A stretch of 64,000 nucleotides of DNA from Thermithiobacillus tepidarius DSM 3134 (lineage in GTDB: Bacteria; Pseudomonadota; Gammaproteobacteria; Acidithiobacillales; Thermithiobacillaceae), in assembly GCF_000423825.1 (NCBI RefSeq), contig NZ_AUIS01000003.1, positions 124,001-188,000 of the forward strand, in the 5' to 3' direction. The translations under genes were made by a program, and so were the position numbers. A model generated the notes under the pieces. It was not told the DNA's origin. It saw only the letters and a list, made by a program, of their open reading frames with translations, and did not search any database. Shown here one piece after another: positions 42,568 through 47,639 of the stretch (positions within the stretch are counted from its first letter, which is position 1; each line of letters opens with the position of its first letter).

Positions 42568-44013
42568 TTAGGCGCGGGCCACTGCCGGGACCGCCTTGGC
42601 CTGCTTGATGGTCATGTACACGTTGTAGACCATCAGCAGCATGCCGGCCACGAAGAAGGCACCGCCCAACGCACGCATGGCGTAGAAGGGATGCATGGCG
42701 GCGACGGACTCGGCGAAGCGGTACATGAGGTTGCCATAGTCGTCGAAGGCGCGCCACATCAGACCCTGGGCGATGCCGCTGATCCACATGGCGACGATAT
42801 AGAGCAGCACACCGATGGTGGCCAGCCAGAAATGCACGTTGATCAAGCGGGTGCTGTAGATCTCCGTATCCCACAGCTTGGGCACTAGATGGTAGAGCGA
42901 GCCGAAGGTGATCATGGCCACCCAGCCCAACGCACCGGAGTGCACGTGGCCGACGGTCCAATCGGTGTAGTGGGACAGCGCGTTTACGCTCTTCAGCGCC
43001 ATCATCGGGCCCTCGAAGGTGGACATGCCGTAGAAGGACAGGGCCACGATCAGGAACTTCATGATGGGATCGGTGCGCAACTTCTCCCAGGAGCCGGACA
43101 GAGTCATGATGCCGTTGATCATGCCGCCCCAGGAGGGCATCAGCAGCATGATGGAGAAGGTCGCGGCCAGGGTCGAGGTCCAATCCGGCAGCGCGGTCCA
43201 GTGCAGGTGATGAGCGCCGACCCACATGTACATGAAGATCAGTGCCCAGAAGTGGATGATGGACAGCCGGTAGGAGTAGATCGGACGGCCGGCCTGCTTG
43301 GGCACGAAGTAGTACATCATGCCGAGGAAGGCGGCGGTCAGGTAGAAGCCCACGGCGTTGTGGCCGTACCACCACTGGGTCATGGCGTCCTGCACGCCCG
43401 AGAACAGGGAGTAGGACTTGGTCAGGGAGACCGGCACCGCCAGGTTGTTGAAGACGTGGAGGATGATGGTCGCCAGAATGTAGGCCAGGAAGAACCAGTT
43501 GGCCACGTAGATGTGGCGCTGCCGGCGCTTCATGATGGTGCCGGTGAAGACCACCAGATAGACCACGTAAACGGCGGCAATCAGCAGGTCGATGGGCCAC
43601 TCGAACTCGGCGTACTCGCGGGTCTGGCTGAAGCCCAGCATGTAGGTGATCTGAGCCAGCACGATGACCGCCAGCCAACCCCAGAAGGTGAAGTTGGCCA
43701 TGGCGTCACTGAAGAGGCGCGCCTGGCAGGTGCGCTGAACGACATAATAGGAGGTCGCGAACAGGGCGCTGCCGCCGAAGCCGAAGATCACCGTCGTGGT
43801 GTGCACCGGACGGAAGCGGCCAAAGGTGATGTAAGGATTATTGAAGTTCAGAAACGGCCAAGCCAGTTCCGAGGCGATGTAAAGCCCCACCGACATGCCG
43901 ACCACGCCCCAGATCAGGGCCATGATGGTAAATTTCTTGACGATGTCATAGTTGTATTCGACCGCTGCCGAACTGGCGGTAGCTGTCGAAGCCGTTGCCG
44001 TAGCCGTAGCCAT
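42568..44013 (-). CDS. ccoN: cbb3 cytochrome c oxidase subunit I (CcoN)
   Basis: A 481-residue catalytic subunit with 12 membrane helices. Present are [22 protein letters not shown] (haem b ligand region), [20 protein letters not shown] with the active-site histidine, and [23 protein letters not shown] with the CuB histidines. Further conserved blocks are [30 protein letters not shown] and YHLVPKLW. The first 18 residues are an unusual Ala/Thr/Ser run ([16 protein letters not shown]). It reduces oxygen at high affinity. It is the first gene of ccoNOQP, preceded by a sigma-70-like promoter at 44116-44144. Confidence 0.97.
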
Positions 44014-44115
44014 AACCCCTCCGTAGAAGCTTACTTATTACCTTTGAACCAAGCTGCGCGCCGTCCCATCCGGCCGCCCTGCCCGCACAGGAGGGAGGAT
44101 CGGATATAGCGCGAG

Positions 44116-44144
44116 AAAATAAGACACATGTATCTTTATGTCAA
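44116..44144 (-). promoter_or_regulatory. Candidate sigma-70 promoter of ccoNOQP
   Basis: On the minus strand TTGACA (44139-44144), 17-base spacer, TATTTT (44116-44121), about 100 bases before the ccoN ATG. No convincing ANR/FNR box (TTGAT-N4-ATCAA) is present nearby. Confidence 0.6.
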
Positions 44145-44315
44145 CAAATTTTCGCCCCCGGCACTTGCCATAAGGAACTTTTTGCTGGCATAAATTGTCT
44201 TTGTTAATTGGCCTGGTTCCCCAAAACATATTGATGATGCCATAGGCGATCAGAAAATTACCAATTAATTTAGTGCGAATACATATAGAAATTTTCTAAA
44301 GGGAGTTCCTGCCCG

Positions 44316-44537
44316 ATGCACAAGTGCCCTGGACGCGTCCGAGCCATGACCTACCTCATCTGGGGGACGATCAGCGTCCTGCTCCTGGGCTTCTGGGCAA
44401 CCCGGGCCGCCTCGCAGCAGCCCGCTCTGCATGAACCATCCTTTTCGATGCAGCCGCGCGGGCCTGACGCCCCGCAACGGCGGGGCGACCCGGCCCATGG
44501 CCGGATCACACCCCGCTTGGTCCCCAGCCGGATGTGA
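44316..44537 (+). CDS. Possible small membrane protein, unrecognised
   Basis: A 73-codon frame. An ATG 10 bases after GGGAG begins MHKCPGRVRA, then a hydrophobic span TYLIWGTISVLLLGFWATRA and a Pro/Arg-rich tail that looks non-conserved. It would be divergent from ccoN. The tail covers a GC hairpin and reads like untranslated DNA, so the frame may be spurious or truncated. No family recognised. Confidence 0.25.
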   Translation: MHKCPGRVRAMTYLIWGTISVLLLGFWATRAASQQPALHEPSFSMQPRGPDAPQRRGDPAHGRITPRLVPSRM

Positions 44538-44803
44538 CCGTCAAGCTTCAGGCAAGCCGCAACGCGGCATCCCATCACGGATGCCGGTGCGAAACACGGC
44601 TGGCACCGACGCGCAGCCGGTATCCTCTAGTATAAACCCGATGGGGAACGCTTCACGAGCCCTGTTGCGGGCAGAAGGGACATCTCATGGAAGGAGGCGG
44701 GGGCTGAAGTTCAGGCCAACCGCGGCGCGTCAAGGCAAAGCGTCCACGGCCGGCGTCCACCCAGGACCAGTTGGAGCGCGGACGCCCTGGAGCCGCCCTG
44801 CCG

Positions 44804-45142
44804 TCAATCGTGGGCGACCTTGTACAAGGTGTGGAAGAGCTCATTGAAGGAGACCTCGGCGTTTCTCACAAAACAAGCCACTTCGCCCATGGCGCACACG
44901 GACAACTCCGGTCCGCTCATGGCCCAGCCGCGTGGCGGGGTCCACCCCCCCATGCCGGAAAAGGCGGTCAACATGTCGCCTTGCTGCTGCAGGATGCGGC
45001 CGTTGGCGTAGCACAGCTCTGCTGCCAGTCCAGCATAACCGGGGTCGATCTCGCCCACCGCCTCCGCCAGGCTGCCGTCATCATAGAAGCGCAAGGCGGC
45101 GACGGTCCCCTTGACCGAAAGCAGACTCTCCAATCTCATCAT
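44804..45142 (-). CDS. DUF2173-like (roadblock/LC7-like) protein, paralogue 3
   Basis: A 112-residue soluble protein, the last of three tandem paralogues. The shared core is LxxLxGxxAALxF..DGxLxE..G..xPxxAxLAAxLCxANxR..Q; here it reads LLSVKGTVAALRFYDDGSLAEAVGEIDPGYAGLAAELCYANGRILQQQG. The second half (GWAMSGPELSVCAMGEVACFVRN) matches paralogue 1 closely. I assign it by recall to DUF2173, a roadblock/LC7-like family seen in sulfur-oxidising proteobacteria; its function is unknown. The ATG at 45142 follows AAGGAGG. It lies 88 bases after paralogue 2. Its CANN-like cysteine motif reads CYAN instead of CAAN. Confidence 0.7.
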   Translation of the reverse strand: MMRLESLLSVKGTVAALRFYDDGSLAEAVGEIDPGYAGLAAELCYANGRILQQQGDMLTAFSGMGGWTPPRGWAMSGPELSVCAMGEVACFVRNAEVSFNELFHTLYKVAHD

Positions 45143-45230
45143 GGACCTACCCTCCTTTTGCGCCCGTTCCGACCGCATGCCGGGCCGCGCTTCACTGGAG
45201 ACATCCCTCCCGATGGCATCGCCGCGGCGG

Positions 45231-45563
45231 TCAGACCCGATCGTTCAGGACGCGGAAGCTCAGGTCATAGTCGACATCCCGGCTGCGGGCAAAGAGCGCC
45301 TTCGTTCCCATGGCCATGATCACGTAGTCCAGGCCAATGAAGAAAAAGCCCTGCTCCGGAAAGAACCCCCCCTCTCCAGTGTGCTTGGCCCAGCCGAGCG
45401 CCTGCATGCGGTAATTGGCCATGTTGGCGGCGCACAGCTGGGCCGCGACTTCCGCGAAATCCGGCTGGAGATCGCCGCGGGACTCGATCAAATCCCCGGT
45501 GCAGGAAAACTCCAGCGCACCGAAGGCCCCAGGCAACGACATGAGCTGGTCCAATGTAGGCAT
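45231..45563 (-). CDS. DUF2173-like (roadblock/LC7-like) protein, paralogue 2
   Basis: A 110-residue soluble protein. LDQLMSLPGAFGALEFSCTGDLIESRGDLQPDFAEVAAQLCAANMANYRMQ shows the shared core including LPGA and CAANxxxxRMQ. The second half differs from the other two: GWAKHTGEGGFFPEQGFFFIGLDYVIMAMGTKALFA, more aromatic and lacking the GWAMxGPEL motif. The ATG at 45563 has AAGGAG 6 bases upstream. It is the most divergent copy, which suggests a distinct partner or role within a shared complex. It lies 37 bases after paralogue 1. Confidence 0.75.
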   Translation of the reverse strand: MPTLDQLMSLPGAFGALEFSCTGDLIESRGDLQPDFAEVAAQLCAANMANYRMQALGWAKHTGEGGFFPEQGFFFIGLDYVIMAMGTKALFARSRDVDYDLSFRVLNDRV

Positions 45564-45600
45564 AAAGCGCTCCTTGTTGTTCGTGGAGGGGGTCGGTCGC

Positions 45601-45945
45601 CTACCCTTCAACACCGGCGGCCGTACGCATGGCCTCGATTACCTGGTTGAAGGAGCTTTCCCGGATGCGCAGCATGCACATGGCATCATCCACCGCCACC
45701 ATCGCCAGTTCCGGCCCGACCATGGCCCAGCCCACGTAGGCCGTCCAGCCCGGCTGGCCGGACAGATCGGCCAGCAGGCGGCCCTGCATGCGCATGGTCA
45801 TGGAGTTGGCCGCGCACATGCGCGCCGCCAGTTCGGCGTACTCGTCGGGCAGCGGTCCCTCGAAGTCATTCAGCAGGCCCTTTCTGGAAAAGACACCCGC
45901 CGCCACGGCGCCCGGCAGCTCGAGCATGTCCGTTACTCTTGACAT
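45601..45945 (-). CDS. DUF2173-like (roadblock/LC7-like) protein, paralogue 1
   Basis: A 114-residue soluble protein and the first gene of the three. VTDMLELPGAVAAGVFSRKGLLNDFEGPLPDEYAELAARMCAANSMTMRMQ is the canonical form of the core. The second half GWTAYVGWAMVGPELAMVAVDDAMCMLRIRESSFNQVIEAM looks like the alternating strand/helix of roadblock/LC7 folds. The ATG at 45945 follows GGAGG at 5 bases. It sits behind the candidate activated promoter at 46015-46061. Roadblock proteins often scaffold or regulate small GTPases; no GTPase gene lies next to these. Confidence 0.78.
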   Translation of the reverse strand: MSRVTDMLELPGAVAAGVFSRKGLLNDFEGPLPDEYAELAARMCAANSMTMRMQGRLLADLSGQPGWTAYVGWAMVGPELAMVAVDDAMCMLRIRESSFNQVIEAMRTAAGVEG

Positions 45946-46014
45946 AAGGCCTCCAGGATCGGGCTGGACAGAAGTGTGGATAGCGGCCGCGCAGCAATGG
46001 CCGCCTCTGATATG

Positions 46015-46061
46015 AGTATAGTTTGGGAGGGAGCACGCAGGGGCGGAATAGTACCTAAGTA
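46015..46061 (-). promoter_or_regulatory. Candidate activator-dependent promoter of the DUF2173-like genes
   Basis: On the minus strand TATACT (46015-46020) serves as -10 with no good -35. A dyad TACTTAGGTA (TAC-N4-GTA, 46052-46061) is centred about 48 bases before the expected start. The half-sites resemble NarL/FixJ/LuxR-type sites. It lies just after the bioD stop, so these genes need not depend on the biotin operon. Confidence 0.4.
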
Positions 46062-46080
46062 GGAGGGCCGGCAACCGGCT

Positions 46081-46758
46081 TCAGACGGCCAACTGATCGA
46101 GCCGCAGATGGGCGGCCAGTGCACGCCAGGGTGCTGGGCCATCGACGTGGGGCAGGATGCCCAGGCAGGGAGCGGTCAGCAGGGCCTGCAAGCTCTCCAC
46201 GGTGCCGGGGGCAGCTTCCCCGGGCGCGGCCGCATTGCCCACCCAACCGGCCAGCGGCAAGCCGCGGCGGGTGATGGCCTCGGCAGAAAGCAGGGCGTGA
46301 TTGATGGCGCCCAGGCGCAGGCTCACCACCAAGATCACCGGCAACGCCAGCCGGCAGGCCAGGTCGGCGAAGGAAGCGCCGTCGCTGAGCGGCACCAGGA
46401 AACCGCCGGCGCCCTCGACGACCACGCGCTCGGCCTGCGCCGCCACCCCGCGCACGTGCCCGACCAGCCAGTCCAGGTCCACCGCGACCCCGGCCTGCCG
46501 CGCCGCCCAGTGCGGGGCGATGGGCGGCGCGAAGGCGTACGGGTTGACCACAGCGTAGTCCAGGCGCACGTTTGCCGCGGCCATGAGCGCTTCGGCGTCC
46601 TCGTTGCGCAGGCCGACTGCCGTCTTCCGGCAGCCGGAAGCGACCGGCTTCAGGCCCGCTACCCGTTCGCCGCAGGCAGCCAGGGCGCTGAGCAGAGCGC
46701 AGGCCACCTGGGTCTTGCCTACGCCGGTATCGGTACCGGTGACGAAGAAGCCGCGCAT
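46081..46758 (-). CDS. bioD: Dethiobiotin synthetase
   Basis: A 225-residue BioD that closes the ureido ring of dethiobiotin from DAPA, CO2 and ATP. The start FFVTGTDTGVGKTQVACALL contains the Walker A-like P-loop. GLKPVASG, the EGAGGFLVPLSDG loop and VVSLRLGAINHALLSAEAI are family marks. Its ATG overlaps the bioC stop (TGATG). It is the last gene of the leftward bioB-F-H-C-D run. Length is typical. Confidence 0.96.
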   Translation of the reverse strand: MRGFFVTGTDTGVGKTQVACALLSALAACGERVAGLKPVASGCRKTAVGLRNEDAEALMAAANVRLDYAVVNPYAFAPPIAPHWAARQAGVAVDLDWLVGHVRGVAAQAERVVVEGAGGFLVPLSDGASFADLACRLALPVILVVSLRLGAINHALLSAEAITRRGLPLAGWVGNAAAPGEAAPGTVESLQALLTAPCLGILPHVDGPAPWRALAAHLRLDQLAV

Positions 46759-47639
46759 CAGGAGCGCCGACGCAACTGGCTCAGCGGCACGCCGACACGG
46801 CCGTCGGACAGCGGCCGGTTGTCCGGGCGGCGGCCGGCCCAGGCATGACCGTAAACCACCTCATAGGTGGCAGGCAGGCCGTCGGGCCGGCGGAAGCGCT
46901 CGTAGGCATCGCTCAACGCCTGCAGACGGCGGGCCGTCATCAAGCCGCGAGGACGGGCACTGGTGGCATTCTGCGCACCGATGGCCTTGAGGTCACGCAT
47001 GACGGCACGCACGTCCGCATAGGTAAGCGTGAAGTGCTCCACATCCATGACCGGCATCTCGAAGGCATTGCGCACCAGGGCGTCGCCGATGTCGTGCATG
47101 TCGATGAAATCGCTGACGTGGCTGTGCGCGTCATCCACGGCACGGAACACTTGGCGCAGCTCCTTCAGCGTGTCCGGGCCGAAGGTGGTGAACATGAGCA
47201 GGCCGCCGGGCCGGAGCACGCGGGCGAATTCCGCCAATGTGCGGTCCAGATCGTTGCACCACTGCAGGGACAGGCTGGAAAAGACCAGGTCGAAGCGCGC
47301 GTCCTGGAACGGCAGGCTCTCCAGGTCGCCGCAGACGAAGTGCTGCCTGGCGAACCAGCCCTTGGCCTTGCGCGCGCGCCGCAGCATGGCGTCGGCCAGG
47401 TCGAAGGCCAGCACCCGGGCCTTCGGGTAGCGCTTGTTGAGGGCGCGGCTGCAATAACCGGTGCCGCTGCCGGCGTCCAGGATCCAGTGGGGCTCGAGCT
47501 TCACCAAGTCCAGGCGCTCCAAGAGGCGGCTCGCCACCTCGCGCTGCAGCACGGCCGCGTCGTCGTAGGTGGCGGCCGCCTTGTTGAAGGCGCGGCGCAC
47601 CGCGCGCTTGTCGATGGGGGTCAGGGAACTGTCCTTCAT
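46758..47639 (-). CDS. bioC: Malonyl-ACP O-methyltransferase
   Basis: A 293-residue SAM methyltransferase that methylates malonyl-ACP to disguise it for fatty-acid elongation to pimeloyl-ACP methyl ester. Family marks are DKRAVRRAFNKAAATYDDAAVLQREVA, the SAM loop ILDAGSGTGYCSRALNKRYP, LSLQWCNDL and GGLLMFTTFGPDTLKELRQ. The start at 47639 (MKDSSLTP) is 12 bases after GGGAGG. The much longer open frame upstream covers bioH out of frame and is not a fusion. It lies 8 bases after bioH. Confidence 0.96.
   Translation of the reverse strand: MKDSSLTPIDKRAVRRAFNKAAATYDDAAVLQREVASRLLERLDLVKLEPHWILDAGSGTGYCSRALNKRYPKARVLAFDLADAMLRRARKAKGWFARQHFVCGDLESLPFQDARFDLVFSSLSLQWCNDLDRTLAEFARVLRPGGLLMFTTFGPDTLKELRQVFRAVDDAHSHVSDFIDMHDIGDALVRNAFEMPVMDVEHFTLTYADVRAVMRDLKAIGAQNATSARPRGLMTARRLQALSDAYERFRRPDGLPATYEVVYGHAWAGRRPDNRPLSDGRVGVPLSQLRRRS

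What the first reader, a model, noticed from the sequence alone, without database searches (positions are those of the whole stretch)
44804..45945. Three tandem DUF2173-like (roadblock-like) paralogues: a candidate undescribed system
Three small soluble paralogues share LPGAxAA and CAANxxxRMQ cores but differ in the second half; copy 2 is clearly diverged and copy 3 alters the cysteine motif (CYAN). Each has its own strong ribosome-binding site and all sit behind one candidate promoter. Tandem triplication with divergence suggests a hetero-oligomer, for example a roadblock heterodimer or trimer. A conserved cysteine in every copy could be a redox or sulfur site. No adjacent GTPase explains them.
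Basis: partly seen in the sequence, partly recalled or inferred. Interest (0 to 1): 0.8.

Follow-up and report, generated by a model that had tools for sequence, protein, structure and literature searches.

The report
Ancient three-gene roadblock-fold protein cassette
Three small neighbouring genes in the sulfur-oxidising bacterium Thermithiobacillus tepidarius encode three different roadblock-fold proteins that have been inherited together, in the same order, across many mostly sulfur-oxidising bacteria, which suggests an uncharacterised three-part protein complex that in most of these genomes has no detectable small GTPase switch to work with.

Summary
Three minus-strand genes (alpha 45601-45945, beta 45231-45563, gamma 44804-45142) are members of Pfam DUF2173 (E 6e-30, 1e-29, 4e-35). 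The genome is Thermithiobacillus tepidarius DSM 3134T. They are not a local triplication. Each falls in its own ancient clade, and the order alpha-beta-gamma holds in 106 of 110 related loci. All three are under purifying selection (dN/dS about 0.1), beta and gamma often overlap by 1-8 nt, and one genome carries two whole cassettes. AlphaFold models of beta and gamma (pLDDT 91-94) have the MglB/LAMTOR2-type roadblock fold. I infer an obligate hetero-oligomeric roadblock complex. In 23 of 34 cassette-bearing genomes I found no MglA-like or COG2229-like small GTPase, so GTPase control is unlikely to be general. Neighbouring genes are housekeeping and differ between lineages. All 34 cassette genomes in a 274-genome class sample carry soxB and/or dsrB, against 93 of 240 without it. 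However, 18 Competibacteraceae-type genomes carry the cassette and lack both, so the sulfur link is correlative. The claim of a cysteine in every copy fails: gamma orthologues mostly lack it. Complex formation and function are untested. I found no functional description; the literature search was limited.

The parts
45601..45945 (-). alpha subunit gene, DUF2173 paralogue 1 (114 aa)
   Evidence: PF09941 E 5.8e-30; falls in the alpha clade of the tree
45231..45563 (-). beta subunit gene, DUF2173 paralogue 2 (110 aa)
   Evidence: PF09941 E 1.4e-29; beta clade; roadblock fold, pLDDT 91.5
44804..45142 (-). gamma subunit gene, DUF2173 paralogue 3 (112 aa; a second ATG at 45137-45139 is possible)
   Evidence: PF09941 E 3.5e-35; gamma clade; roadblock fold, pLDDT 93.6
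45950..45954 (-). Shine-Dalgarno-like GGAGG before alpha
   Evidence: read from the sequence
45570..45575 (-). Shine-Dalgarno-like AAGGAG before beta
   Evidence: read from the sequence
45150..45159 (-). Shine-Dalgarno-like AAAAGGAGGG before gamma
   Evidence: read from the sequence

Best explanation
The three genes encode the three different subunits of one cytoplasmic hetero-oligomeric complex built from roadblock folds, comparable in architecture to the LAMTOR/Ragulator roadblock pairs or MglB. Roadblock domains pair edge to edge, so alpha, beta and gamma most likely assemble with one another into a scaffold or sensing platform. In most of its hosts it must work without an MglA-like or COG2229-like small GTPase, so it probably binds another partner or ligand directly. 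Its host range points to respiratory sulfur metabolism or an allied redox process. Shown here: the gene family, the predicted roadblock fold of beta and gamma, ancient divergence of the three, strict co-inheritance, purifying selection, absence of a detectable partner GTPase in most hosts, and association with sox/dsr genomes in the class sample. Inferred: physical complex formation, scaffold or sensor role, and sulfur relevance.
For: Order alpha-beta-gamma in 106 of 110 loci (some loci are the same genome reached twice; about 65 non-redundant sets). Of 34 cassette genomes in the class sample, 29 have exactly 3 copies, G019 has 6 as two whole cassettes in the same order, and only 4 have 1-2 copies. 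Three supported clades, one per position. Beta-gamma overlaps of 1-8 nt in many loci suggest translational coupling. Median dN/dS 0.10-0.12 for each gene. Roadblock fold: VIA-align Z 15.6 to 3kye, 14.3 to Ragulator chains, about 13 to MglB; Foldseek E 1e-4 to 1e-5 with probability 1.00. No MglA-like or COG2229-like GTPase in 23 of 34. SoxB or DsrB in 34/34 cassette genomes against 93/240 without (Fisher 3e-13), while a GTPase family of similar frequency used as control gives only 27/44. A DUF2173 gene in two Sulfolobaceae is up 99- and 32-fold on sulfur (PMC11323534).
Against: No complex could be modelled or measured; only monomers were folded. Competibacteraceae-type genomes (18 tested) carry the cassette but no SoxB or DsrB, and only 7 of 18 have an FccB-type domain. 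The neighbours are housekeeping genes that change between lineages, so context gives no function. Related genomes are not independent, so the Fisher value overstates the case (34 genomes, 21 families). The archaeal DUF2173 is described as a membrane protein, so its behaviour may not transfer. Sulfolobus acidocaldarius and Methanosarcina acetivorans also carry the family.
Confidence: 0.55

Rival explanations
1. They are MglB-like regulators (GAP or effector platform) of a small GTPase encoded elsewhere in the genome.
For: The fold is closest to MglB and Ragulator. T. tepidarius does encode a COG2229-like GTPase cluster with its own canonical roadblock protein, and 10 of 34 cassette genomes have such a GTPase against 34 of 240 others.
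Against: 24 of 34 cassette genomes lack the COG2229-like GTPase at E 1e-25 and only two have an MglA-like one; three single-contig genomes (G019, G080, G269) have neither. The GTPase already has its own PF03259 roadblock partner beside it.
Confidence: 0.15
2. The three are independent homodimers with separate ligands that merely stay in one operon.
For: Many roadblock proteins homodimerise (MglB, archaeal roadblocks). The three differ strongly in the long helix and in their cysteines.
Against: All-or-none inheritance, fixed order and whole-cassette duplication are more than operon convenience would require.
Confidence: 0.2
3. The complex is a thiol redox or metal-binding unit: a helix cysteine in alpha and beta plus a Cys-x6-Cys pair on neighbouring strands in alpha and gamma form a redox switch or metal/persulfide site.
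For: C44 in 64/65 alpha and 55/63 beta; the pair C83/C90 in alpha and C82/C89 in gamma at about 85-92% each. In the gamma model the pair lies on consecutive strands 79-84 and 87-92 with a two-residue turn, so the two should face each other across the hairpin.
Against: The helix cysteine is alanine in 89% of gamma. The window's own alpha has Val at the first pair position, and both pairs are intact together in only 37 of 58 genomes. Buried strand cysteines can be structural.
Confidence: 0.2
4. The link to sulfur oxidation is only shared ancestry; the cassette serves some general redox or storage physiology of these lineages.
For: Competibacteraceae-type genomes keep an intact cassette without SoxB or DsrB; many sox/dsr genomes (93) lack it; no sulfur genes adjoin it in the loci inspected.
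Against: All 34 cassette genomes, from 21 families of the class sample, carry SoxB and/or DsrB, and 7 of 18 Competibacteraceae-type genomes have an FccB-type domain. An archaeal DUF2173 responds to sulfur (PMC11323534).
Confidence: 0.35

Closest known systems
Pfam PF09941 (DUF2173)
   Same: All three proteins score far above its cut-off; same length and motifs.
   Different: The family has no known function; the ordered three-clade cassette is not described in any paper I found.
MglB roadblock GAP of MglA (Myxococcus, Thermus)
   Same: Same fold with the extra C-terminal helix.
   Different: No MglA-like GTPase in 32 of 34 host genomes; three different subunits instead of one; below the PF03259 cut-off by sequence.
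LAMTOR/Ragulator complex (LAMTOR2/p14 and partners)
   Same: Multi-subunit assembly of distinct roadblock folds; gamma matches LAMTOR2 chains at Z about 14.
   Different: Bacterial, no detectable partner GTPase in most hosts, no known membrane anchor, complex not shown.
Bacterial COG2229 GTPase plus Roadblock/LC7 cluster
   Same: Present elsewhere in T. tepidarius with a canonical roadblock protein.
   Different: Separate locus, PF03259 rather than PF09941, and missing from most cassette genomes.

Membership tests
PF09941 (DUF2173) | Score above the curated cut-off of 26.1 bits | tested here: met
   104, 103 and 121 bits; all 46 alpha relatives too
Roadblock/LC7 superfamily | alpha-beta-beta-alpha-beta-beta-beta fold with a long central helix | tested here: met
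   Models of beta and gamma and their matches; alpha was not folded but is close to gamma by profile
Roadblock/LC7 superfamily | Sequence score above the PF03259 cut-off | tested here: not met
   12.7 and 12.5 bits against 23 for alpha and beta, no match listed for gamma
MglB-type GAP | Paired with an MglA-like GTPase, adjacent or in the genome | tested here: not met
   None adjacent; MglA-like GTPase in only 2 of 34 hosts
COG2229-type roadblock/GTPase system | COG2229-like GTPase in the same genome | tested here: inconclusive
   Present in T. tepidarius and 9 others, absent in 24 of 34
Ragulator-like hetero-oligomer | Several distinct roadblock subunits physically assembled | not testable with these tools
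   Only monomers could be folded; co-inheritance is indirect
Sulfur-oxidation accessory system | Genomic linkage to sox, dsr or sHdr genes | tested here: not met
   In the loci whose neighbours I inspected they are housekeeping, bio, cco, pet or suf genes
Sulfur-oxidation accessory system | Found only in sulfur oxidisers | tested here: inconclusive
   34/34 in the class sample, but 18 Competibacteraceae-type genomes lack SoxB and DsrB

The most novel reading that the evidence does not exclude
A bacterial, GTPase-free, three-subunit roadblock platform, analogous in build to Ragulator, that senses or organises sulfur or redox metabolism through its cysteine-bearing subunits.
Probability: 0.25. 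Interest if true: 0.75.

Novelty: new variant of a known kind. Interest (0 to 1): 0.5.

Why it matters
Roadblock proteins are known mainly as partners of small GTPases. A strictly conserved three-part roadblock module that persists where no such GTPase is detectable would show another way of using the fold. It also gives a testable function to a Pfam family of unknown function, in organisms central to the sulfur cycle and to wastewater treatment. The conserved three-gene order makes the hypothesis easy to test by co-expression.

Tried and rejected
PF00025 as a probe for partner GTPases missed the COG2229-like GTPase of T. tepidarius; PF08477 and then an alignment of the GTPase itself corrected this. 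NCBIfam gave no hit for any of the three. The PDB by sequence gave nothing useful (one chance hit at E 0.9). Rfam found nothing in 44000-46800, and there is no tandem DNA repeat, so no recent duplication. Neighbouring genes gave no functional clue: valS/holC/pepA/lptFG/RDD upstream and purL or pcnB downstream in the main type (named from their sequences, not by a family search). I considered that DUF2173 might be the sHdrH subunit of the sHdr system (of unknown function in PMC11582611) but had no sequence to test it. A phylum-wide draw found the family only in the window's own genome (1 of 349), so it is rare outside these families. Searches for papers on DUF2173, COG4831, or roadblock with sulfur oxidation found one relevant paper.

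Full report
What is there. Three genes on the minus strand at 44804-45945 encode proteins of 114, 110 and 112 aa, each with its own Shine-Dalgarno-like site. All are PF09941/DUF2173 with strong scores; the Roadblock/LC7 model PF03259 hits two of them only below its cut-off. The genome is 2,958,498 bp in 43 contigs. Its size equals that published for Thermithiobacillus tepidarius DSM 3134T, an obligate sulfur chemolithoautotroph (PMC5037610). The cassette lies between the biotin genes (upstream, same strand, 135 bp gap) and ccoN of a cbb3 oxidase (downstream). The other genus of the family that was sampled (G026) has the same arrangement. These gene names are read from the sequences and from general knowledge of the families. 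The consensus scan found no promoter just upstream of alpha.

Not a local triplication. In a class-wide sample 34 of 274 genomes carry the family; 29 have exactly three copies, and G019 has six. In a tree of 86 proteins the three window copies fall into three separate, supported clades together with copies from the same position in other genomes. Across 110 loci from two searches, 106 read alpha-beta-gamma on one strand; one is cut by a contig end, two are a two-gene variant and one a single gene. Some of these loci are the same genome reached twice. G019 carries two complete cassettes in the same order. Beta and gamma often overlap by 1-8 bases. All three genes are under purifying selection, median dN/dS 0.12, 0.11 and 0.10. 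A phylum-wide draw found the family in 1 of 349 genomes, the window's own, so the cassette is old but confined to particular lineages.

Fold. AlphaFold models of window gamma (pLDDT 93.6) and beta (91.5) both show the order helix, two strands, long helix, three strands, helix. Foldseek and VIA-align match solved roadblock proteins first: 3kye (Z 15.6), Ragulator chains (about 14), archaeal roadblocks, and MglB (about 13). Alpha was not folded, but its profile aligns to gamma over the whole length with probability 99.8. No solved structure is a sequence relative.

Cysteines. Instead alpha and gamma share a Cys-x6-Cys pair, each cysteine at about 85-92%. In the gamma model the two lie on consecutive strands with a two-residue turn, so they should face each other; I infer this from the strand assignment, having no coordinates. 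The window's gamma keeps both, its alpha only the second. The two pairs are intact together in 37 of 58 genomes.

GTPases. No GTPase gene adjoins the cassette. PF00025 and PF08477 searches found a clear MglA-like GTPase only in G048 and G131. PF08477 also led to a COG2229-like GTPase in T. tepidarius, beside a canonical PF03259 roadblock protein on another contig; the COG number is my own recognition of the sequence, not a database hit. A search with that GTPase found it in 10 of 34 cassette genomes and 34 of 240 others. So 23 of 34 hosts show neither type, including three single-contig genomes. These searches have limited sensitivity, but an obligate GTPase partner of a known kind is unlikely.

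Sulfur link. In the class sample 32 of 34 cassette genomes have SoxB, 24 have DsrB, and all 34 have at least one, against 93 of 240 genomes without the cassette. The COG2229 family, of similar frequency, gives 27 of 44. Relatedness is not corrected for; the 34 genomes come from 21 families. The named loci include Solemya symbionts, Thioalkalivibrio, Thiohalophilus, Thiogranum and Thiohalobacter, but also many Competibacteraceae. Of 18 Competibacteraceae-type genomes tested (15 so named, three others with doubtful or general labels), none has SoxB or DsrB; 7 have an FccB-type domain. One paper reports a DUF2173 gene up 99- and 32-fold on sulfur in two Sulfolobaceae, described there as a membrane protein (PMC11323534).

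Verdict. The best reading is an obligate hetero-oligomeric roadblock complex, in most hosts without a detectable small GTPase, in lineages dominated by sulfur oxidisers. Complex formation, partner and role in sulfur metabolism are inferences that need experiments.

Noticed in passing
L136:8507-13056 (own genome contig C20, about 21.0-25.6 kb): A canonical roadblock/GTPase cluster in T. tepidarius: PF03259 roadblock protein, a 211-aa protein, a COG2229-like GTPase (178 aa), a 405-aa and a 532-aa protein; the same cluster occurs in G026, G172 and G116.
   Followed up: partly
own genome G000: contigs C20, C2 and C4: Three COG2229-like GTPase copies in T. tepidarius; the C2 and C4 copies were not examined for partners.
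   Followed up: no
L122:9420-10574 and L121:1060-1395: The second cassette of G019 lies directly downstream of a suf-type Fe-S cluster operon, and the single DUF2173 gene of G196 lies about 6 kb from one; possibly chance.
   Followed up: no
L125:9331-19284: The first cassette of G019 is next to a cbb3 oxidase operon, as in T. tepidarius and G026, although the genomes belong to different families.
   Followed up: no
L044:13195-17654: In the Solemya velum symbiont a bioB-F-H-C-D cluster lies about 3.5 kb from the cassette; in the window the bio genes adjoin it.
   Followed up: no
L033, L037, L090, L106: Records labelled Rhizobium, Lysobacteraceae, Synechococcaceae and Phycisphaerales carry a gammaproteobacterial-type cassette; their labels or binning look doubtful.
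   Followed up: no
L140:1622-2143 and L141:1338-1832: MglA-like GTPases in G048 and G131, the only clear ones among the 34 cassette genomes; on contigs other than the cassette's.
   Followed up: no
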